In this document: positions 45,385 through 58,984 of the stretch, piece by piece
How the letters are laid out: each line of letters starts with the position of its first letter
How positions within the stretch are numbered: the first letter of the stretch is position 1
The notes under the pieces: model-generated
Databases searched by the model: none
The model's input: only the letters and a program-made list of their open reading frames with translations
What the model was told of the DNA's origin: nothing
Translations under genes and position numbers: made by a program
DNA from: a virus
Length of the DNA: 60,925 nucleotides
Reading direction: 5' to 3' (one strand)
IMG/VR virus record: IMGVR_UViG_3300030419_007265
Span: 1-60,925 of that record

Positions 45385-45588
45385 GTGAAACAATTTTTAA
45401 AATATTTAATTTTGATAACTCTGTTTACAGGCTGTGCTAACTTAAAAGAAGTAGATATAAGCCTTACTGGAATCGAAATGGAATATTATCCTGCCCACCC
45501 TTCACAAGAAGAACCTAGCATTTTTGGAGGTGCCCTGCCTAAAGTTGGAGACACACTTCCTGAATTAATGCCAATGACAAAAAAATAA
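45385..45588 (+). CDS. Small lipoprotein (o-spanin-like candidate)
   Basis: 67 residues from a GTG at 45385 (MKQFLKYLILITLFTGCANLKE), with a lipobox LFTGC. Short mature part with Pro-rich end. A late-type box GTGTAAAACATATT ends directly at the start codon. Followed by a mini-MscS gene and a TM-coil gene with GTGA overlap, so it may be the outer-membrane partner of a lysis or envelope module. Confidence 0.65.
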   Translation: MKQFLKYLILITLFTGCANLKEVDISLTGIEMEYYPAHPSQEEPSIFGGALPKVGDTLPELMPMTKK

Positions 45589-45590
45589 AA

Positions 45591-46022
45591 ATGGAAGAAT
45601 TAGCCTCTTTAACAAATTTAATCAATAGCTCTAATATAGTGCAAGAGTTATCCAGCATGGGCACTGATGACGCAGAAGCAATCGCAAAAAATTTATTTTC
45701 TCAATACGGATGGATATTTGCAGCAGGAGTAGCAGTGATTTTAGCTAAAGACGTAATGATGAATTTTGCCAAAGGTATTTTGATTTTTTATGGCTCTCAT
45801 TTTAATAATGATGATATTATTTACATTAGTGGACGACAAGCCAGAATAGTAAGGGTTGGCTTGACCAGCACCACCTTTTATATGACAGACCGGAAAAGTA
45901 AGATGGTTGTACCCAACGAACAACTAAAAGAGTTAACAATAGAAAAAACGTTACCTCAAAATGGACAAGAACCTTATCTACCTAAAGGTAACGATCCAGA
46001 GTTCACGAAAAATAAAAAGTGA
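45591..46022 (+). CDS. Mini MscS-like membrane protein
   Basis: 143 residues: N-terminal amphipathic helix, one TM (WIFAAGVAVILAKDVMMNF, ~40-60), then the MscS beta-domain pattern (FAKGILIFYGSHFNNDDIIY, GRQARIVRVGLTSTTFYM, then VVPNEQLKELTIEK), i.e. the GD-I / V-x-x-Ig / (V/I)PN motifs of small-conductance mechanosensitive channels. Full-length MscS has three TM helices plus a large cytoplasmic vestibule; here only the pore-lining TM3-like helix and the beta domain remain. Could form a small pore or cap. The next gene starts at a GTG overlapping its stop by 4 nt. Confidence 0.7.
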   Translation: MEELASLTNLINSSNIVQELSSMGTDDAEAIAKNLFSQYGWIFAAGVAVILAKDVMMNFAKGILIFYGSHFNNDDIIYISGRQARIVRVGLTSTTFYMTDRKSKMVVPNEQLKELTIEKTLPQNGQEPYLPKGNDPEFTKNKK

Positions 46023-46318
46023 GCAAATCACAATTTAAAATAAAAATGAAAAGACAAAAGTTATTGCAAAAGCAACAAAGGCAAGCTGAGCAAAAAAAAC
46101 AAGAAAAAAGAAAGTTTAGAAATAAAATTATTTTAGCAATAATTATTATTGCATCTTCAGTGGCCCTCGCTTTCTTATTCGGAGAGAAAAAAGAAGCGAT
46201 CAAAGAAAAAATTGTAGAAAATATTGTGGAAAAAACTGTGGACTCTACTATAGATAAAGCTACTGAAAATATAAAAGAAAAAACAGTTGAAAAACTTACC
46301 GACTTAATTAATAATTAA
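46019..46318 (+). CDS. TM plus amphipathic helix protein (i-spanin-like candidate)
   Basis: 99 residues from GTG 46019, overlapping the previous stop (GTGA). Basic N-terminus, one TM (IILAIIIIASSVALAFLFG, ~36-54), then a periplasmic apolipoprotein-like repeat (IVENIVEKTVDSTIDKATEN...). N-in, C-out topology by the positive-inside rule. With the lipoprotein at 45385 it could form a two-component spanin; the mini-MscS between them is unusual for such a module. Confidence 0.6.
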   Translation: MSKSQFKIKMKRQKLLQKQQRQAEQKKQEKRKFRNKIILAIIIIASSVALAFLFGEKKEAIKEKIVENIVEKTVDSTIDKATENIKEKTVEKLTDLINN

Positions 46319-47397: not shown

Positions 47398-49098
47398 CTA
47401 TTTCCAAACCAGAATATCTTCTAATATTAAATAATCTAAATTAGATCGCAAAAATGTTTTAATGGCATCTTCAGCGCTATCTACCAACGGTTCCCCTTTT
47501 AAATTAAAGCTTGTGTTCAAAAAGACAGGGGTACCAGACAATTGCTCAAAATGACCTAAAGCATTATAAATTATTTTATTTTGTTCAGCATTAACAGATT
47601 GAGGTCTACATGTCCCATCAATATGAGTAACCGCAGGTATTCTCTTTTTCCATTCGTCCCTAACAGGCGCGGCTATTAGCATATATGGAGAAGGGTGCTT
47701 TAAATCCACTATTGTATTAAAATTATCTTCCTTTATAACAGGTGCTAATGGACGCCACAATTCTCTGTCTTTAATTTTGTTTACTTTATCTAAATTCGAT
47801 GCAATGGTAGGATTAGCTAAAATACTCCGGTGGCAAAGTGCCCGCGGCCCTATTTCGGCTTTACCTGCACAATAGCCTACAATTTTATTATTATGAATTA
47901 AAGTTGCTAACGTGCTCGCTACATCTACTTGTTTGTAACGAAGCTGAGAATATTGTTTGATAACCTCAACAGCACTCTTGCTCACAAAACTCGACCCCCA
48001 ATAAGCTGAGGGAAAATTTATTGCAGGGATATGCTTTTTCCATCCAGACTGCTCACTTGAACATAAAATAGCTGCACCTAAAGCCGTACCGCTATCATGA
48101 GCCGCAGGAGGTATAAATAAGTTATTTACAAAAGGCTCTTTGATTAATTGTCCATTTGCTGAACAATTTAAAGCTGTACCTCCTGACAAAGCAAAATCGC
48201 CACATCCGGTTTTTGAATAAAGAAGTGTAGCTGCTTCTAGCAATACCTCTTCTAAATACTGCTGTGCGGTTTTGGCTAAGTTAACGCTTTCCGTACATAG
48301 AATGTTTTCATGAATTTTTTGCTTGACTCCTTGCAGTTCTAACTTTGTAAGAAATGTTTCGACTTTGTTTTGATCAATTTGCCATAATCCACCTCGATTA
48401 ACAAAAATTATATCTCTAGGTAATAGGCTTTCATCGCATTGGCCGTAACACGCCAGACCCATTGTTTTCCCTTCTTGCTCATGAGGCTTAAAACCTAAAA
48501 ACTTAGTAATGTCTTCATAGAAACGACCTATCGAGCCTAAGTAAGTAAAGTACGCTTCTTCTCGCATCTTTCCATTTGAAAAATATCCTGCGCGTCCAGC
48601 GGTTGCCCCTCCATTCCCATCCATGGTAATATAATTACATTCTTTAAAAGGCGAACAACTTATGGAGCTAACGGCGTGACATTCGTGGTGATCATACCAA
48701 TGTAAATTTTGTATGGGAAATCCATATCTTATTGCCTCTTTAATAAGTTGAGCTTCGAGGTCGATATCCGCTAATTCGTAAAGTGCTGCGCCGAACTCGT
48801 CCGACTCCCATTCTAACTTATCCCACTCAAGATCTATGTTCTGCGCATAATCAGCGCCATGACATTTTTCCCATGTGTTTCGCGCTGTATCCCATCCAAT
48901 CGCTATCCTTCCAACGTCTTCTTTTTTAATTCCCGCAGCTTCTAAACAATAGTCAATTGAATGACGCGGAAAAGTTTTAAACGATTGCTTTATTCGGCTA
49001 AACCTCTCTTCTTCTGCAAAAGCAATGATTTCGTTATTTTTAAATAAGCATGCGGCTTGATTATAAGCCCCTAAAGTAGTTATCCCTAATATGTACAT
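47398..49098 (-). CDS. NodU/CmcH/TobZ-family carbamoyltransferase
   Basis: 566 residues, full family length. N-terminal YrdC-related/kinase-like part: MYILGITTLGAYNQAACLF, DHHECHAVSSI (metal-binding His set), DGNGGATAGRAG. C-terminal part: ALSGGTALNCSANGQL, PPAAHDSGTALGAA, the AEIGPRALCHRSILANP motif, ELWRPLAPVIKED and a SGTPVFLNTSFNLKGEP block. Family members transfer a carbamoyl group from carbamoyl phosphate to hydroxyl groups on sugars or antibiotics. In some phages homologues modify hydroxymethyl pyrimidines in DNA. The substrate here is open; nearby sugar-transfer genes favour a glycan. Confidence 0.93.
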   Translation of the reverse strand: MYILGITTLGAYNQAACLFKNNEIIAFAEEERFSRIKQSFKTFPRHSIDYCLEAAGIKKEDVGRIAIGWDTARNTWEKCHGADYAQNIDLEWDKLEWESDEFGAALYELADIDLEAQLIKEAIRYGFPIQNLHWYDHHECHAVSSISCSPFKECNYITMDGNGGATAGRAGYFSNGKMREEAYFTYLGSIGRFYEDITKFLGFKPHEQEGKTMGLACYGQCDESLLPRDIIFVNRGGLWQIDQNKVETFLTKLELQGVKQKIHENILCTESVNLAKTAQQYLEEVLLEAATLLYSKTGCGDFALSGGTALNCSANGQLIKEPFVNNLFIPPAAHDSGTALGAAILCSSEQSGWKKHIPAINFPSAYWGSSFVSKSAVEVIKQYSQLRYKQVDVASTLATLIHNNKIVGYCAGKAEIGPRALCHRSILANPTIASNLDKVNKIKDRELWRPLAPVIKEDNFNTIVDLKHPSPYMLIAAPVRDEWKKRIPAVTHIDGTCRPQSVNAEQNKIIYNALGHFEQLSGTPVFLNTSFNLKGEPLVDSAEDAIKTFLRSNLDYLILEDILVWK

Positions 49099-51270: not shown

Positions 51271-52083
51271 ATGGAAGTAGATTTCACTCACCGAATAATT
51301 CAAGCAAAAGAAGGTAAAACCTTGAATAAACCTTTCCGCACCCCAAAAGGTCCTAAAAAGTTTTCAGTATATGTTAAAAACGAAAAGGGGAATGTGGTAA
51401 AGGTTAATTTCGGCGATCCTAATATGGAAATCAAACGAGATGACCCTGATCGTCGCAAAAACTTTCGTGCTCGTCACAACTGCGCAAATCCGGGTCCTAA
51501 AACCAAAGCTCGCTATTGGAGTTGTAAAATGTGGGAGGCGGGAAAATCGGTAAGTGATTATACTAAAGGTTCGCATCCCGCAGATGAGTGGGACGGCGAA
51601 ACTGTTTTTGACTTAGACGAACTCATATCTATCAATCCTTCTCTTGCCTTTGTGGATGATCCTGACGAAGAAGAGGAAGAGGATTGCGGGTGTGGTAGTG
51701 GATGCGGCTGCGAAGCAGTTGCTTCTAGGCCCGGCCCCAAGTCGTCAGCACAAACTCCTGCCAAGCCAAGTGAAAGAAAAAAAGGCTCTAGTAAAAATAA
51801 ACCCGGCAGCGCCGGAAGCGGGGGAGGTAAAATCACCTTCTCTGAAAGCACAGTTAAATCTTTAAAAGAAAAAGTTAAAGAGCATAACGCTAAACATTCT
51901 AAAAAAGTTACTTTGGGGCAACTTAAAAAAGTATACAGAAGAGGGGCGGGAGCTTTTTCTTCTTCTCACAGACCGGGCATGAGTCGTGGAGGATGGGCTA
52001 TGGCAAGAGTTAATATGTTTTTAAAAATGAAAAGGGGCGGAAAAGTTAAAGATTCTTATCGAAAAGCTGATGGCGATATTTAG
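51271..52083 (+). CDS. Phage protein with two large-phage conserved domains
   Basis: 270 residues. Domain 1 (~25-95): KKFSVYVKNEKGNVVKVNFG ... RRKNFRARHNCANPGPKTKA ... RYWSCKMW, a motif set I recall from large marine phages. An acidic and Cys-rich linker (DEEEEEDCGCGSGCGCE). Domain 2 (~205-262): KKVTLGQLKKVYRRGAGAFS ... RPGMSRGGWAMARVNMFLKM, a second known phage domain of unknown function. The cysteines, conserved basic residues and location suggest a nucleic-acid-binding or structural role; not established. Late-type box GTGTATATATAATTAAT precedes the ATG. Confidence 0.75.
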   Translation: MEVDFTHRIIQAKEGKTLNKPFRTPKGPKKFSVYVKNEKGNVVKVNFGDPNMEIKRDDPDRRKNFRARHNCANPGPKTKARYWSCKMWEAGKSVSDYTKGSHPADEWDGETVFDLDELISINPSLAFVDDPDEEEEEDCGCGSGCGCEAVASRPGPKSSAQTPAKPSERKKGSSKNKPGSAGSGGGKITFSESTVKSLKEKVKEHNAKHSKKVTLGQLKKVYRRGAGAFSSSHRPGMSRGGWAMARVNMFLKMKRGGKVKDSYRKADGDI

Positions 52084-52762
52084 ATTATTTATTTTTTTAT
52101 TTTTAGCTTCTAGTATTTATGCTGAAAATCGTTATGAAATAATTCATAAAAGAAATGCTTTTGGGTTAGCTTCCAGCACACCTGCCCCTGCTTTACCTCC
52201 CGTAACTATTGTAATGCCACCTGTTGAAATTTATCTAACAGGAATTACAAAACATAGAAAGCCTAAAGCTCATTTAGTTATAAAAGGAAAAGGAATAGTA
52301 AAAAATAAATTTTTATCCTTGACTGAAGGGGAACAGAAAGATAATATCTCTGTTATCAAAATTTTAAAAAATTCTGTTATTATTAATAATGGAAGCAGCC
52401 AGCAGCAACTTAGCTTTAAGACTCATGGGCTGCCAACGGTAATAACCAAGGTACCTACTGTCAAAATAGCGGAGAAGGGCTCTAAAAGCTCTTCTAAGAG
52501 CGTTAAAGCTTCGCCCCCTACTCCACCTACCCCTAGGCCTCAAATCGTCCCTGTACCCTCTCGTAAGCCTCGTATAGACCCCCGCATACTTGAAAGAGGT
52601 TTAGAGTACATCAGTAAAATAGAAGATAAAGAAAAAAAAGAGTATATTCTTCAAAGATTAGAAAAACTTCAAAACGGACAAGAAAAGATAGATAATAAGA
52701 TTGATTCAAACGAAAGAAGAAGAAGATACGATGAATATAAAAGATCTCGTTCGCAAAAATAA
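52070..52762 (+). CDS. Exported protein with GspC/PilP-like domain
   Basis: 230 residues. Signal peptide MAIFRLFIFLFLASSIYAEN, then HKRNAFGLAS...(Pro-rich)...VEIYLTGITKHRKPKAHLVI, followed by a GEQKDNISVIKILKNSVIIN strand pattern: the layout of GspC/PilP homology regions as found in many Verrucomicrobial exported proteins. C-terminal Pro-rich then charged helical tail. The start overlaps the preceding stop region by 14 nt. A phage copy of a host secretion or envelope factor; function unknown. Confidence 0.6.
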   Translation: MAIFRLFIFLFLASSIYAENRYEIIHKRNAFGLASSTPAPALPPVTIVMPPVEIYLTGITKHRKPKAHLVIKGKGIVKNKFLSLTEGEQKDNISVIKILKNSVIINNGSSQQQLSFKTHGLPTVITKVPTVKIAEKGSKSSSKSVKASPPTPPTPRPQIVPVPSRKPRIDPRILERGLEYISKIEDKEKKEYILQRLEKLQNGQEKIDNKIDSNERRRRYDEYKRSRSQK

Positions 52763-52802: not shown

Positions 52803-53024
52803 ATGTCAGTTCATCTTAAAACAATGTTAGAATCCGCTAAGCGCGCGGCTTCCGCAGCTCAGGATGCAGCCAATGATTGCCAGAAGGCCGTAGAAGCAAG
52901 TCGCCGTGAAGCTGAAGAAATTTCCTCTTTAGCTAATGAAGCCTCCACCCAAGTAGTTCAAGCTCAAGAACGAGTAAAAACAATTGAAGCAAAAATAACG
53001 GCTACTTCAAACTCAGACGGTTGA
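52803..53024 (+). CDS. Small coiled-coil protein
   Basis: 73 residues, entirely helical heptads (LESAKRAASAAQDAANDCQK...AQERVKTIEAKI). No TM or signal. Its 3' end overlaps the oppositely oriented fucosyltransferase gene by 12 nt. Confidence 0.6.
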   Translation: MSVHLKTMLESAKRAASAAQDAANDCQKAVEASRREAEEISSLANEASTQVVQAQERVKTIEAKITATSNSDG

Positions 53025-54059
53025 AAGAACAGTATCCTTAAAGAATTTAAGGATAGCGTCAGGCTTAACCGATTCGGGAATAGTATTGTCAACAAAAAGA
53101 GGTTCATTTATATAGGATTGGTATCTCTCTTCATTCTGGTCAATTTGTTTTATATCTTCGATCATTTCGTCGATCGATTCATAATCAATTAGATTGATAA
53201 ATGCTTTTGTGTTGAAGTCGTTTGACACACTGGAGTGCCCCCAGTAAATAGGTACTGCTCCCGCGATTTTAGCATGAAAAAGTTTTTCGGTATGGTAGCC
53301 TTCCCGAATTTTATTTTCAAAACAAAAAATAAACCTATAGTCTTTAGAGATTTCTAATTTTCTTTTTTCCCACGGATAGAACCCGTTACCAAAATAATCT
53401 CCATATCCATCTACAGTTTTATAAGCGTTTAATTTTTCATACGCTTCTATACGATTACCTGTTGAATTATTAAAAAAACTTACACAAAATTTAGTTTTAG
53501 TAGTGTTTTTGTATTGATTATCATTTATATCAGATTCGCCTATCAAAAGAGCTGGCTCACCATAAGAAACATCATACCCTTGATATTGAGCATTATATGT
53601 AGCCTTGTTAAACCAATCAATCTGATACGCCCAATAGGGAAGCCTTTTGTGACGGGTATCGCTGGTTACATCATGAGTTAAAGCAAAGTCGCACTTTGAG
53701 TAATAATATTTTACTCTATCGCTATCTTCACTATCTCCAGTTAAATCACTTAGAGGATCACTAACATATGTTGTTTGGGACCCTGCAGTTGTACGAATGG
53801 AAACAGAAGGAGGATAAGAAGTCTCTTGATCTAACTTAGCAGGGATACCTTCCATTGTATAAAAAACTCTTTTTGTGATTTTGTCTTTATACTTAAGTCT
53901 TTCTTGATTTTGATAAGGGTCGCATGATAAAAATAATATATCCGGATTTTCTTCGTCCAGTTCTACATCGTAAGCAGTTTTCAGTAGATGATAAAAGTAA
54001 TTGTTATCATAATAAAACTGAGGCCAAAAATCTGCAAACCATAATTTTAATTTTGACAT
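53013..54059 (-). CDS. GT10-family fucosyltransferase
   Basis: 348 residues. Family GT10 (alpha-1,3/1,4-fucosyltransferase) signature: KFCVSFFNNSTGNRIEAYEK, then YRFIFCFENKIREGYHTEK and HAKIAGAVPIYWG, the donor (GDP-fucose) binding motif. N-terminal acceptor part with DILFLSCDPY. Soluble, no TM. With the carbamoyltransferase and 49167-49985 it makes a scattered sugar-modification set that may alter host LPS or virion glycans. Confidence 0.9.
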   Translation of the reverse strand: MSKLKLWFADFWPQFYYDNNYFYHLLKTAYDVELDEENPDILFLSCDPYQNQERLKYKDKITKRVFYTMEGIPAKLDQETSYPPSVSIRTTAGSQTTYVSDPLSDLTGDSEDSDRVKYYYSKCDFALTHDVTSDTRHKRLPYWAYQIDWFNKATYNAQYQGYDVSYGEPALLIGESDINDNQYKNTTKTKFCVSFFNNSTGNRIEAYEKLNAYKTVDGYGDYFGNGFYPWEKRKLEISKDYRFIFCFENKIREGYHTEKLFHAKIAGAVPIYWGHSSVSNDFNTKAFINLIDYESIDEMIEDIKQIDQNEERYQSYINEPLFVDNTIPESVKPDAILKFFKDTVLSTV

Positions 54060-54060
54060 T

Positions 54061-54321
54061 TTATTCTTTTTCTAGTTTGTTTATATATCTATTTAAATCG
54101 CAGCACTCTTCAAGTAAATGTATAGCGGTAGCCCTCCAAAATTTACCAACGTCACGCAAAGCTTCATTTTGGTCTCTGAGCTGTTCTAAATTAACTTCAA
54201 TGCCAGTAACATGCTTAAGAGTATTGTCTATGAGAGGACAGGTGTCAGCCGGTATTTCAGGGCAATCCTCTTTTAGTTCTTTGTATCCTTTAGCTGGAAA
54301 ATTCATTCTCTTCGTTTCCAA
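54061..54321 (-). CDS. Small hypothetical protein
   Basis: 86 residues, METKRMNFPAKGYKELKEDC..., with a C-terminal helix holding CCDLNRYINKLEKE. No domain recognised. Its start overlaps the HTH gene's end by 19 nt and its stop is 1 nt before the fucosyltransferase start. Confidence 0.6.
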   Translation of the reverse strand: METKRMNFPAKGYKELKEDCPEIPADTCPLIDNTLKHVTGIEVNLEQLRDQNEALRDVGKFWRATAIHLLEECCDLNRYINKLEKE

Positions 54322-54650
54322 TACTTATGTTCGTAATCAGGTGTGTTTTCTTGAGCAATTGCTTCCTTCCATACTGCAGATGAATTTTTATCAATTAACC
54401 CATGATTACACGAATGAGTATTAGGTGATGGTTCCCATCGTCTAGCTAACGCATACATTTGCTGCTCTTCATAATGTAGCATGTGACACAAAAAAGAAAA
54501 CTTCCTCAAGATGCTTCTTTTTGGGGGAGGATTAATTCCTTTTTCTATTTTACGCCACATTGATTTTGGAATTCCCAGTAGTTTGCACAGCTTGTCAGTA
54601 TTCTTAAAATATTTTTGCCTATATTCTTTTATATAGGTATGAAACTTCAT
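54303..54650 (-). CDS. XRE-like HTH DNA-binding protein
   Basis: 115 residues. Residues ~15-55 form an XRE-type HTH (LCKLLGIPKSMWRKIEKGIN with NPPPKRSILRKFSFLCHML). C-terminal part aromatic, unknown. Likely a small regulator; a late-type box GTGTAATTTACTTGAA overlaps its upstream region. Confidence 0.7.
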   Translation of the reverse strand: MKFHTYIKEYRQKYFKNTDKLCKLLGIPKSMWRKIEKGINPPPKRSILRKFSFLCHMLHYEEQQMYALARRWEPSPNTHSCNHGLIDKNSSAVWKEAIAQENTPDYEHKYWKRRE

Positions 54651-54666
54651 TTCAAGTAAATTACAC
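54651..54666 (-). promoter_or_regulatory. Late-type box before HTH gene
   Basis: GTGTAATTTACTTGAA ending at ATG 54650. Confidence 0.6.
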
Positions 54667-54905
54667 TACTTTTTAATTTTCACTGGTTCGTGCTGTCTGG
54701 TTGTGTAAATATGGTGCAATTCATCATATGCTTCATTATAATTCCATCTTGGGCATTTAAAAGACATAGTTCTGTGCTTGGGATAATCTTCTTGCCATAC
54801 CCATGTTCCAGAACAGCCACAAAAGGCTATCGCTAAAGAAACGTACAATAAAGTATGAATAAGCCTATGAATGGCGCTGTTGCTATGATTAAATATTCTT
54901 TCCAT
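54666..54905 (-). CDS. Small lipoprotein nested in a TM-protein gene (o-spanin-like)
   Basis: 79 residues, MERIFNHSNSAIHRLIHTLLYVSLAIAFCGCSG with lipobox AIAFC/GC. The first 72 nt lie inside the TM gene 54833-54988 in a different frame, the classical Rz/Rz1 nesting. Mature part short with W and H residues. Last gene of the five-gene cassette 54666-55672. Confidence 0.65.
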   Translation of the reverse strand: MERIFNHSNSAIHRLIHTLLYVSLAIAFCGCSGTWVWQEDYPKHRTMSFKCPRWNYNEAYDELHHIYTTRQHEPVKIKK

Positions 54906-54988
54906 TGGGATTTAAATTCATATCGTGCGATATTATACAGGCATGCAAGGTTTTCCTTAAAAGTAAGTTTTTTAACGAGTCTTGCCAC
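54833..54988 (-). CDS. Small single-TM protein (GTG start), below ORF cut-off
   Basis: 51 residues: VARLVKKLTFKENLACLYNI... then a TM segment YLIIATAPFIGLFILYCTFL to the stop. The GTG overlaps the stop of the upstream lipoprotein gene (TAGTG), the mark of coupled translation, and the downstream lipoprotein nests inside it. C-terminal tail-anchored; candidate holin or i-spanin partner, although very short for an i-spanin. Confidence 0.6.
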   Translation of the reverse strand: MARLVKKLTFKENLACLYNIARYEFKSQWKEYLIIATAPFIGLFILYCTFL

Positions 54989-55290
54989 TATTCCCTCTCT
55001 CTTCTGGATGGTTGCCTACTTGGGACACCTTTACTTATAGAACGGCTTGTAGGGGGCGTCTCAGGCCTACTAGGAGGCATAATCTGACGAGGGGAGGGTA
55101 AAGGTTTTGATTCATGTTTACGGGATCGCTTTTTATGATGGCGATGATGGTGATGATCGTAATAATGATGATCGTAATGTATATACCGTACTTCGTGCGT
55201 ATGATAGTGTCTAGTGTCTACAGATTCCCAACCACACGACTCACATCCTGTATTTAAAATTATAATTAAGGTTAATATTAAAATTCTCAT
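54988..55290 (-). CDS. Histidine-rich lipoprotein
   Basis: 100 residues. MRILILTLIIILNTGCESCG with lipobox LNTGC. Mature part has a His/Tyr-rich stretch (15 His in about 25 residues around YIHYDHHYYDHHHHRHHKKR), then a Pro-rich tail (KPLPSPRQIMPPSRPETPPT), the composition of Rz1-type o-spanins. The His cluster could bind metal. Start overlaps the previous stop as ATGA. Confidence 0.7.
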   Translation of the reverse strand: MRILILTLIIILNTGCESCGWESVDTRHYHTHEVRYIHYDHHYYDHHHHRHHKKRSRKHESKPLPSPRQIMPPSRPETPPTSRSISKGVPSRQPSRRERE

Positions 55291-55454
55291 CTTACTCCTG
55301 ATCCTTGTCGATAAATAGGCGCATCGGAACTATTTTTTTTGATAACTTTTTTTGAAGGTTGACTTAACAGAGAAAAACCAAGTATAACGAGCGCAGCAAT
55401 TAAAATAGAAGCAATACCCCACTTATCATTGAATATAGAATTTTGTAACTTCAC
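55287..55454 (-). CDS. Small single-TM protein (GTG start), below ORF cut-off
   Basis: 55 residues, VKLQNSIFNDKWGIASILIA... with TM WGIASILIAALVILGFSLL (~12-31) and a charged C-tail (KKVIKKNSSDAPIYRQGSGV). Both ends overlap neighbours by 4 nt (GTGA with the 73-aa gene, ATGA with the His-rich lipoprotein), which strongly supports its reality. Topology class III holin-like or i-spanin-like. Confidence 0.7.
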   Translation of the reverse strand: MKLQNSIFNDKWGIASILIAALVILGFSLLSQPSKKVIKKNSSDAPIYRQGSGVR

Positions 55455-55672
55455 TTTTTAATTTTCTTTCTTATTTTTTTAAAACCTTGTATTATTAAAT
55501 CTTTAATAATAAATGGCGATAAAGCAATGCACCCTAACACATAAAAAGCTTTGTCTCCAATTCCTAGAGTTTTCACTTTTTTTTCCTTCTTAATCATTTC
55601 ATTTATAGCTTTTAGTGTTTCTTTATCTGCATTCCATCTTTTATCTTCCCAAGACCACACGGTAATCTTCAT
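55451..55672 (-). CDS. Small membrane protein, head of the TM/lipoprotein cassette
   Basis: 73 residues, MKITVWSWEDKRWNADKETL..., one TM (KAFYVLGCIALSPFIIKDLI, ~43-62) and a basic tail (FKKIRKKIKK). First gene of the cassette; a late-type box GTGTAATATTTTCATA lies 28 nt upstream. Holin-like size and shape. Confidence 0.6.
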   Translation of the reverse strand: MKITVWSWEDKRWNADKETLKAINEMIKKEKKVKTLGIGDKAFYVLGCIALSPFIIKDLIIQGFKKIRKKIKK

Positions 55673-55754: not shown

Positions 55755-55769
55755 GGTGCATTATGCACC
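55755..55769. other. Perfect hairpin in the gap between lectin and membrane cassette
   Basis: GGTGCA-TTA-TGCACC, immediately followed by the palindrome TTTGAGCTCAAA. The gap 55673-55853 holds this and the cassette's late-type box, and no gene. The hairpin has no T-run, so it is not a textbook terminator; operator or RNA processing site are options. Confidence 0.5.
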
Positions 55770-55853: not shown

Positions 55854-56618
55854 TTATTCTTTCCTTGGTTTCCCATTTAAAATCCAATGAGAAGGCAATG
55901 ATCCTTCAAAATGAAGGGAAATATTTTTATTACTCTTATTTAATACCCAAATTGGGGTTCCAGCTGAAATAACATGATTTGGAATCATCCACTCTTCAAA
56001 CTCATCATCATAAGAATTAATTAACCATCCATCATGATAATCATAATCATAAACAACAATATCAGAATTAGATCCAAATAATGATCCTATTGTATTTGTT
56101 TTGTAAGAAAAAGGAACTGTAATCATCGAAAATCCAACGGGTACCACTTGCGAATAATAATAAATGGATTTTTCATTTGATAGCCGCGGTGTTGTAATTT
56201 TATCGCTTTTTTCAAGAATATATCCTTTTACATATCTTGGAAAATTTTCCTTTACATCTCCCCATGTGTAATTCTTTGTTGCTTTTATAATAAGATAATC
56301 TTCGTTTCCTGCATTGTCAGGAAATCCTGTGTCCCAATTTGAATAAGAAAATGACTCTTCAGTTACCCAGCGCCAATTCCCTTCTTCTTTTTCATCTGTA
56401 GCTCCAAGCCAATAATAAGTAGATTCAATATTAGGCATTAATTCATTTATTTGTTTTTGTTCTACTTCATTAGTTATTGTCGCCAAGTGACCTCCTTGTG
56501 CTTCAGCGTGTGCTTTTGCTTCGTGCCAAGTAAAAGCTCCCTCAACGATTTCGTAGGATGTTGCGTTGAGTGAAAACAGACTCATAAAAAGAGCCCCAAA
56601 AATAAATAACCTGTTCAT
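55854..56618 (-). CDS. Secreted C-type lectin-domain protein
   Basis: 254 residues. Signal peptide MNRLFIFGALFMSLFSLNA. Residues ~22-136 are a C-type lectin fold: WHEAKAHAEAQGGHLATIT, YYWLGATDEKEEGNWRWVTE, SYSNWDTGFPDNAGNEDYLI, ending WGDVKENFPRYVKGYI. The remaining ~110 residues (VVPVGFSMITVPFSYKTNTI, AGTPIWVLNKSNKNISLHFE) resemble a beta-rich domain of exported bacterial proteins. Phage-carried secreted lectins are unusual. Has a host-type promoter of its own. Possibly a surface-acting moron. Confidence 0.8.
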   Translation of the reverse strand: MNRLFIFGALFMSLFSLNATSYEIVEGAFTWHEAKAHAEAQGGHLATITNEVEQKQINELMPNIESTYYWLGATDEKEEGNWRWVTEESFSYSNWDTGFPDNAGNEDYLIIKATKNYTWGDVKENFPRYVKGYILEKSDKITTPRLSNEKSIYYYSQVVPVGFSMITVPFSYKTNTIGSLFGSNSDIVVYDYDYHDGWLINSYDDEFEEWMIPNHVISAGTPIWVLNKSNKNISLHFEGSLPSHWILNGKPRKE

Positions 56619-58477: not shown

Positions 58478-58984
58478 GCATCTGACAGGGCAGATATAAA
58501 ATAACCCTGACGCTTTTTGAAAATTTGAGTTGGCGAGTAAAGGTCTAGCGGCCTGACGCCTCCTTTGCCCACGGTTTGCCAGATATACCTACGGGTCGGT
58601 GCACGTTGAAAGGCAATGTTAAAACACCTCTCCTTTTGCAAGTGTTTTGATTAGACGGCCTAAGAAGGGACAAGGATGGTAAGACATCTTACGCTTGATT
58701 ACTGGTGGCGCGGTAACAACTCAATTAATTTTCTCTCTCGACGGAGGGAGATCGGTGTGGCTGAATAAATCTTCGCCTAGAGGATTAAGGCACGCTCGAT
58801 GAGACTAACGGCCAAGTGGCAGAGGAATTATCGGGTGGTTTGAGTAGGGATCACTGAAACTTGATCTAGGACTCGAAAGATGTAGGTACTCAAGAAATCC
58901 TACCACCAAATTTTTTTTGTAGGCCCGTGTGTGCGCTGTCTACCTCATAACACTAAACACCCCGCGAAAGCGGGGTGTTTTTTT
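58478..58984 (+). ncRNA. Structured non-coding RNA candidate, ~500 nt
   Basis: No convincing coding frame in 58451-58955. Local stems: CAGGG..CCCTG (58485-58509), AAAGG..CCTTT (58540-58566), AAAACAC..GTGTTTT (58620-58647), GTAAG-acat-CTTAC (58679-58692), TCTCTCTC-gacg-GAGGGAGA (~58732-58751). A long-range pair joins GGTGG...TTTGAGTA (~58833) to TACTCAA...CCACC (~58889-58909) around GATCA..TGATC. Ends in a perfect terminator. Length recalls ROOL/GOLLD-type phage RNAs, but no family can be named by eye. The 5' end is uncertain. Confidence 0.6.
58956..58984 (+). terminator. Strong intrinsic terminator of the RNA region
   Basis: ACACCCCGC-GAAA-GCGGGGTGT then TTTTTT. Shows that a transcript crosses the gene-less stretch and is meant to end here. 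Confidence 0.95.

What the first reader, a model, noticed from the sequence alone, without database searches (positions are those of the whole stretch)
54666..55672. Five-gene nested cassette alternating TM proteins and lipoproteins
73-aa TM, 55-aa TM, His-rich lipoprotein, 51-aa TM and a second lipoprotein overlap by 4-nt GTGA/ATGA, TAGTG and a 73-nt nested start. The last pair is arranged like Rz/Rz1. Two of the genes are below usual length cut-offs and would be missed. The cassette may be a compact lysis or envelope-fusion system. No endolysin is present beside it.
Basis: partly seen in the sequence, partly recalled or inferred. Interest (0 to 1): 0.75.

Follow-up and report, generated by a model that had tools for sequence, protein, structure and literature searches.

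The report
Marine phage operon of envelope peptides
A marine virus of bacteria carries five tiny overlapping genes for membrane and lipid-anchored peptides; all five are real and shared with other viruses, and one 49-residue lipopeptide changes less than the virus's packaging motor, so it probably acts on a conserved part of the host's cell envelope rather than bursting the cell.

Summary
All five frames are conserved. One contig (L022) has the same gene order with 4/4/1/76-nt overlaps, and the nested fourth/fifth pair recurs, always in the same relative frame, in six contigs. The lysis reading is not supported. The fourth protein has its membrane helix at its extreme C-terminus, so it cannot be an Rz-like inner-membrane spanin. 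The cassette is modular rather than an obligate pair. In relatives the endolysin candidates lie 7.7-31 kb away, often on the other strand, and in two the lysozyme lies beside a recognised holin. The notable part is the last gene. Its mature lipopeptide is in 31 viral contigs, with saturated synonymous change (median pS 0.83) but pN 0.07, and is far more conserved than the terminase. Its signal peptide is repeatedly remade, several times by overprinting the 3' end of the upstream gene. The second gene belongs to a set of 17 anchored peptides ending in GSG[IV]R. Best explanation: separate anchored peptide effectors aimed at a conserved host-envelope component, working like superinfection-exclusion lipoproteins (T5 Llp/Cor) but not members of that family.

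The parts
55451..55672 (-). P1, 73 aa: conserved cytoplasmic-type N-terminus (MKI..SW[KE]D[EK]RW.ADKE.L..IN.MI), one hydrophobic segment, basic C-terminus
   Evidence: 15 IMG/VR hits, 16-row alignment, pN/pS 0.47; no Pfam/PHROG/NCBIfam family
55287..55454 (-). P2, 55 aa: N-terminal TM and short tail ending in GSGVR-COOH; GTG start, GTGA overlap with P1
   Evidence: 17 distinct ORFs of 3,454 end in G[ST]G[IVLM]R, all P2-type short peptides
55290..55304 (-). codons of the C-terminal GSG[IV]R motif of P2
   Evidence: codons vary synonymously between contigs (GGA/GGT/GGC/GGG, TCA/TCT/TCG, AGA/AGG/CGA), so the constraint is on the peptide and not only on the downstream ribosome-binding site
54988..55290 (-). 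P3, 100 aa: His-rich and Pro-rich lipoprotein with C-terminal motif SR.ISKGVP; ATGA overlap with P2
   Evidence: relatives in 11 contigs; two kinds of His-rich core recombined between phages
54833..54988 (-). P4, 51 aa: basic cytoplasmic N-terminus and C-terminal TM; 1-nt TAGTG overlap with P3
   Evidence: 8 contigs; pN/pS 0.48
54833..54905 (-). 73-nt double-coding stretch: P4 transmembrane helix and P5 signal-peptide N-region (frame +2)
   Evidence: same frame offset and 73-100 nt overlap in W, L012, L021, L022, L023, L031; both frames constrained
54666..54905 (-). P5 precursor, 79 aa: lipoprotein with signal peptide overprinted on P4
   Evidence: the only other in-frame start (TTG, codon 20) would leave 11 residues before the Cys
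54669..54815 (-). P5 mature lipopeptide, 49 aa, ultra-conserved
   Evidence: 29 distinct sequences, 70-96% identity to the window, 20 invariant positions; median pS 0.83, pN 0.07
54303..54650 (-). downstream HTH gene, 115 aa, usual 3' neighbour of the cassette
   Evidence: weak HTH_31/PHROG regulator hits; close downstream of P5 or P3 in many relatives

Best explanation
The cassette is an accessory envelope operon of a marine tailed phage that makes separate membrane-anchored peptide effectors; it is not a lysis module. P1 and P4 face the cytoplasm. P2, P3 and P5 present peptides to the periplasm from the inner membrane (P2) or from lipid anchors (P3, P5). The conserved part is each displayed peptide (P5 mature domain; GSG[IV]R tail of P2; His-rich core and SR.ISKGVP tail of P3), while the anchor or signal peptide can be exchanged. 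The most likely mechanism is that mature P5 (and probably P2 and P3), tethered to the envelope, binds and blocks or redirects a conserved host envelope protein during infection, shutting the cell to other phages (as T5 Llp does with FhuA) or taking over an envelope machine. Shown: the genes, overlaps, conservation, modularity, re-made signal peptides, spread to phages with no detectable terminase relationship. Inferred: export, lipidation, topology. Not shown: the target, the host, the phenotype.
For: Mature P5 is under extreme purifying selection: saturated synonymous change, pN 0.07. It is 85-93% identical to the window in phages whose terminase is only 40-44% identical, and 70-96% identical in contigs with no detectable relative of the window's terminase or capsid protein, including 119-kb and 200-kb contigs. 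That points to a partner the phages share, most simply a host protein. The anchor is free and the peptide is not: signal peptides of several unrelated types, overprinted on P4, P1, a D84-type gene or a DUF1552-like gene, or joined to a P1 C-terminus. The GSG[IV]R tail sits behind different TM or lipoprotein-like anchors with saturated codon variation. Genes are gained and lost independently. Holin and endolysin candidates lie elsewhere. Neighbours (lectin, fucosyltransferase, carbamoyltransferase, HTH) suggest a surface/host-interaction region rather than a lysis region. Precedent: T5 Llp, a 61-residue lipoprotein acting from the periplasm (PMC9586334).
Against: No direct evidence of export, lipidation, localisation or phenotype. 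The window's two lipoboxes are atypical. Superinfection-exclusion proteins usually track diversifying receptors, so extreme conservation fits an essential, non-evolving target better than a receptor. AlphaFold models of P5 are poor (mean pLDDT 64.6 and 54.0), so there is no fold to compare. Host unknown. P5 could instead bind a phage protein not examined here.
Confidence: 0.45

Rival explanations
1. Lysis/envelope-fusion cassette: P4/P5 or P2/P3 act as an i-spanin/o-spanin pair that fuses inner and outer membranes.
For: Overlapped gene pairs of a membrane protein and a lipoprotein; P3 is Pro-rich; P2 (about 25 periplasmic aa) plus P3 (about 85 aa) fall in the 62-300 aa range surveyed for spanins, and i-spanins without coiled coils exist (PMC6139136). 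Atypical lipoboxes such as LNGC and FVGC occur in o-spanins.
Against: P4 has no periplasmic domain. P2 and P3 are mostly found apart, and some P2-type peptides look like lipoproteins. Endolysin candidates 7.7-31 kb away, in two phages beside a recognised holin. Mature P5 is neither Pro-rich nor variable.
Confidence: 0.1
2. The five proteins form one trans-envelope complex (P1/P4 platform in the inner membrane, P2 linker, P3/P5 outer-membrane lipoproteins).
For: Tight translational coupling; all-membrane composition; full co-occurrence in W, L022 and, with an extra TM gene, L012.
Against: Most contigs carry subsets: P5 alone, P1-P3, P1-P5 or P2-P5. Not an obligate complex.
Confidence: 0.15
3. 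P5 is a lethal lipoprotein of the colicin-lysis-protein (BRP) type whose signal peptide or lipid anchor damages the envelope.
For: Small lipoproteins with variable signal peptides; analogy from general knowledge only.
Against: In that class the signal peptide contributes to activity (own knowledge), whereas here the mature part is constant and the signal peptide is replaceable.
Confidence: 0.07
4. Metal-handling cassette: the His-rich P3 binds Zn/Ni/Cu in the periplasm and the other proteins assist.
For: P3 His clusters; a weak local match to a His-rich loop of a Ni/Co efflux transporter model, E=0.0005 but far below its cut-off.
Against: The match is compositional. P5 and P2 carry no metal motif and occur without P3.
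Confidence: 0.08

Closest known systems
Phage T5 Llp / Cor superinfection-exclusion lipoproteins (PMC9586334)
   Same: Small phage-encoded lipoprotein of similar mature size (61 vs 49 residues); in the proposed mechanism it acts from the periplasmic side on a host envelope protein.
   Different: No sequence similarity found to any phage record in the collection searched. P5 has one Cys besides the lipidated one, whereas Llp/Cor keep an intramolecular disulphide. P5 is not next to a receptor-binding protein gene, sits in a multi-gene cassette, and is ultra-conserved, whereas Llp and Cor share about 20% identity.
Two-component spanins Rz/Rz1 (PMC6139136)
   Same: Overlapped genes for a membrane protein and a lipoprotein.
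   Different: P4 has its TM at the C-terminus and no periplasmic domain; pairing is not obligate; no holin or endolysin nearby.
Unimolecular spanin (T1 gp11 type, PMC6139136)
   Same: Lipoprotein signal.
   Different: Neither P3 nor P5 has a C-terminal TM.

Membership tests
Two-component spanin, P4/P5 | i-spanin: class II protein with N-terminal TM and periplasmic domain | tested here: not met
   P4 TM is residues ~33-49 of 51; C-tail of 2-4 residues in most members
Two-component spanin, P4/P5 | Combined periplasmic length 62-300 residues | tested here: not met
   49 + ~2 residues; range from PMC6139136
Two-component spanin, P2/P3 | N-terminal-TM protein plus lipoprotein, overlapping genes, adequate periplasmic length | tested here: met
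   P2 TM at residue 14-30, about 25 periplasmic aa; P3 mature about 85 aa; 4-nt overlap
Two-component spanin, P2/P3 | The two genes are retained together (obligate pair) | tested here: not met
   P2-type gene without P3 beside it in most of 17 contigs; P3 without P2 in L003-L006, L019, L049
Spanin / lysis cassette | Association with holin/endolysin genes (usual, not obligatory) | tested here: not met
   Endolysin candidates 7.7-31 kb away, opposite strand in several
Spanin | Fuses membranes / complements lambda Rz-Rz1 | not testable with these tools
   needs a lysis assay
Unimolecular spanin | Lipoprotein with C-terminal TM | tested here: not met
   single hydrophobic peak at the N-terminus of P3 and P5
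Llp/Cor superinfection-exclusion lipoproteins | Sequence similarity | tested here: not met
   no convincing match in 50,697 phage records or PHROGs
Llp/Cor superinfection-exclusion lipoproteins | Intramolecular disulphide in the mature protein | tested here: not met
   only C21 besides lipidated C1; feature from PMC9586334
Llp/Cor superinfection-exclusion lipoproteins | Lipidated, periplasmic, blocks a receptor | not testable with these tools
   GC before the Cys is invariant, but processing and phenotype need experiments

The most novel reading that the evidence does not exclude
A previously undescribed class of phage envelope effectors: short peptides (a 49-aa lipopeptide changing more slowly than the terminase, and a C-terminal GSG[IV]R peptide) displayed in the periplasm from interchangeable anchors, where new phage contexts make a fresh signal peptide by overprinting the 3' end of the upstream gene. 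They would target one essential, slowly evolving host-envelope component shared by many marine phages.
Probability: 0.3. Interest if true: 0.85.

Novelty: new variant of a known kind. Interest (0 to 1): 0.62.

Why it matters
Sub-80-codon overlapping genes are routinely dropped by annotation; here a 49-residue phage lipopeptide under stronger constraint than the terminase has no family in Pfam, PHROGs, NCBIfam or PADLOC. Its near-invariance across phages without detectable terminase relationship makes it a ready bait for finding a conserved vulnerable point in the envelope of uncultured marine bacteria. The repeated re-creation of its signal peptide by overprinting neighbouring genes is a clear natural example of targeting signals evolving anew while the cargo stays fixed.

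Tried and rejected
Lysis cassette: tested by endolysin and holin searches in up to 25 contigs; cassette and lysis genes lie apart.

GSG[IV]R tail as a by-product of the downstream ribosome-binding site: rejected, because synonymous codons vary at most positions and some break the SD core.

P5 as a recent transfer: rejected, because pS is saturated.

Structure of P5: two AlphaFold jobs, with and without signal peptide, both low confidence, so no fold search was run.

Distant sequence relatives: PDB, Pfam, PHROGs, NCBIfam and PADLOC gave nothing usable. P4's weak SecE-gamma hit (E=0.066) was not taken as evidence.

A pilus/secretion-protein (PilP/GspC-like) reading of the ~230-aa neighbour family (window 52070-52762), recalled from memory, found no support.

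Cultured phages: no relative of this DNA stretch, P1 or P5.

Promoter/terminator scan and RNA fold upstream of P1: little above chance.

Literature: no paper found that names the P5 core or describes overprinted phage signal peptides.

Full report
Observation. The window is a 60,925-base linear IMG/VR virus record with a lambda-like tail module, terminase and PhoH.

Are the genes real? Yes. Searches of IMG/VR gave relatives of P3, P1, P5 and P4. L022 keeps the whole order P1-P2-P3-P4-P5-HTH with 4/4/1/76-nt overlaps; L012 has the same genes with an extra TM gene after P1 and another 35-nt overlap. Mean pN/pS was 0.47, 0.40 and 0.48 for P1, P3 and P4. The nested P4/P5 junction recurs in W, L012, L021, L022, L023 and L031, always in the same relative frame, with 73-100 nt overlap; in the overlap P4 is more conserved between W, L021 and L022 than in its unique part. 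Several loci listed separately are the same contig fetched twice, and L023/L031 are close relatives, so the counts are not all independent.

What changes and what does not. The cassette is a mosaic: P1-P3, P1-P5, P2-P5, P5 alone and the full set all occur. P5 is the constant: 31 viral contigs, one contig binned in a Flavobacteriales MAG (L051) and the window. Across 29 distinct mature sequences the median pS is 0.83 and pN 0.07, with 20 invariant positions. Against the window, mature P5 is 85-93% identical where the terminase is 40-44% identical (L012, L022, L028, L033, L034, L008, L041), and still 70-96% identical in contigs with no match to the window's terminase, including the 119-kb and 200-kb contigs. 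The signal peptide is not constant: MDIDKEIKFLERWT... in most; MERIF.../MDGRYE... overprinted on P4; MVKKKIII... overprinted on the 3' end of P1 (L016, L042); MERKKKEWFKR... overprinted on a D84-type gene (L024); one overlapping a DUF1552-like gene (L045); L041 joins a P1 C-terminus to P5.

P2. All 17 distinct ORFs (of 3,454 in the fetched loci) that end in G[ST]G[IVLM]R are short peptides of the P2 type, most with an N-terminal TM or a lipobox-like SSC; the codons vary freely. The tail is therefore a peptide motif, even though in the window it also contains the AGGAG before P3.

Not a lysis module on present evidence. P4's helix is at its C-terminus, which rules out an i-spanin role as defined in PMC6139136. 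TerL-related relatives carry a Hydrolase_2 protein 7.7-12 kb from P5, on the other strand in three of five. L023- and L031-type phages carry a lysozyme-LysM protein with a Phage_holin_10 protein close upstream (one GIY-YIG-like ORF between), 27-31 kb from P5. In the close relative G006 the hydrolase is about 8.4 kb from P5, a distance that would fall beyond the end of this window. P2/P3 meet the topology of a spanin pair but are not kept together.

Mechanism. Free exchange of anchors with a fixed exported peptide, shared by phages with no detectable terminase relationship, is what one expects if the peptide binds a conserved host-envelope protein. The nearest working analogue is T5 Llp, a 61-residue lipoprotein that jams FhuA from the periplasm (PMC9586334). 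P5 is not a member of that family: no sequence similarity, only one non-lipidated Cys, and no receptor-binding protein gene beside it. Whether the outcome is exclusion of other phages or takeover of an envelope machine is open; the extreme conservation leans to an essential target. Export, lipidation and topology are inferred from hydropathy and conserved GC motifs; no dedicated signal-peptide predictor was available. AlphaFold gave no confident fold.

Host. Unknown. A DUF1552 gene in relative L002 (PF07586) is a weak lead to Planctomycetota/Verrucomicrobiota; the MAG that holds L051 is labelled Flavobacteriales, but a binned phage contig is weak evidence.

Noticed in passing
L018:6096-7637 and the like (L008, L012-L014, L017, L021, L023, L027, L028, L031-L036, L039, L041, L050): A ~515-aa ankyrin-repeat protein with a C-terminal class III nucleotide-cyclase-like domain (21.4 bits, just under the Pfam cut-off) lies upstream of P1/P5 in many of these phages.
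   Followed up: partly
window 45385-46318: A second envelope cluster: 67-aa lipoprotein (LFTGC), a mini MscS channel (PF00924, E=2.7e-7) and a 99-aa single-TM protein with a charged periplasmic helix. It is more spanin-like in shape than P4/P5.
   Followed up: partly
L005:8334-8717 and relatives (phrog_20984): A ~127-aa single-TM coiled-coil protein often next to P1, P3 or P5; an i-spanin-like candidate of unknown function.
   Followed up: no
L092:4329-5585: A phage tubulin/FtsZ-like protein (PF00091, E=1.3e-19) in the window's relative G002, next to a 264-aa lipoprotein with an internal TM.
   Followed up: no
window 52070-52762: Exported ~230-aa family with an N-terminal RNAF motif and a conserved C-terminus; in L017 it overlaps P5 by 4 nt; also in phages without a related terminase. 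No Pfam or PDB relative.
   Followed up: partly
window 58734-58913: manA RNA motif (Rfam RF01745, 56.3 bits) among small plus-strand genes that often begin MRD....
   Followed up: no
window 55755-55769: Inverted repeat GGTGCAT-A-ATGCACC in the gap upstream of P1; the only copy in the window.
   Followed up: no
window 53013-54059, 47398-49098, 55854-56618: Fucosyltransferase, carbamoyltransferase and C-type lectin genes around the cassette: a surface-modification region.
   Followed up: no
L051 (NZWA01000041.1): A P5-bearing phage contig binned in a Flavobacteriales MAG: either a host hint or a binning artefact.
   Followed up: no
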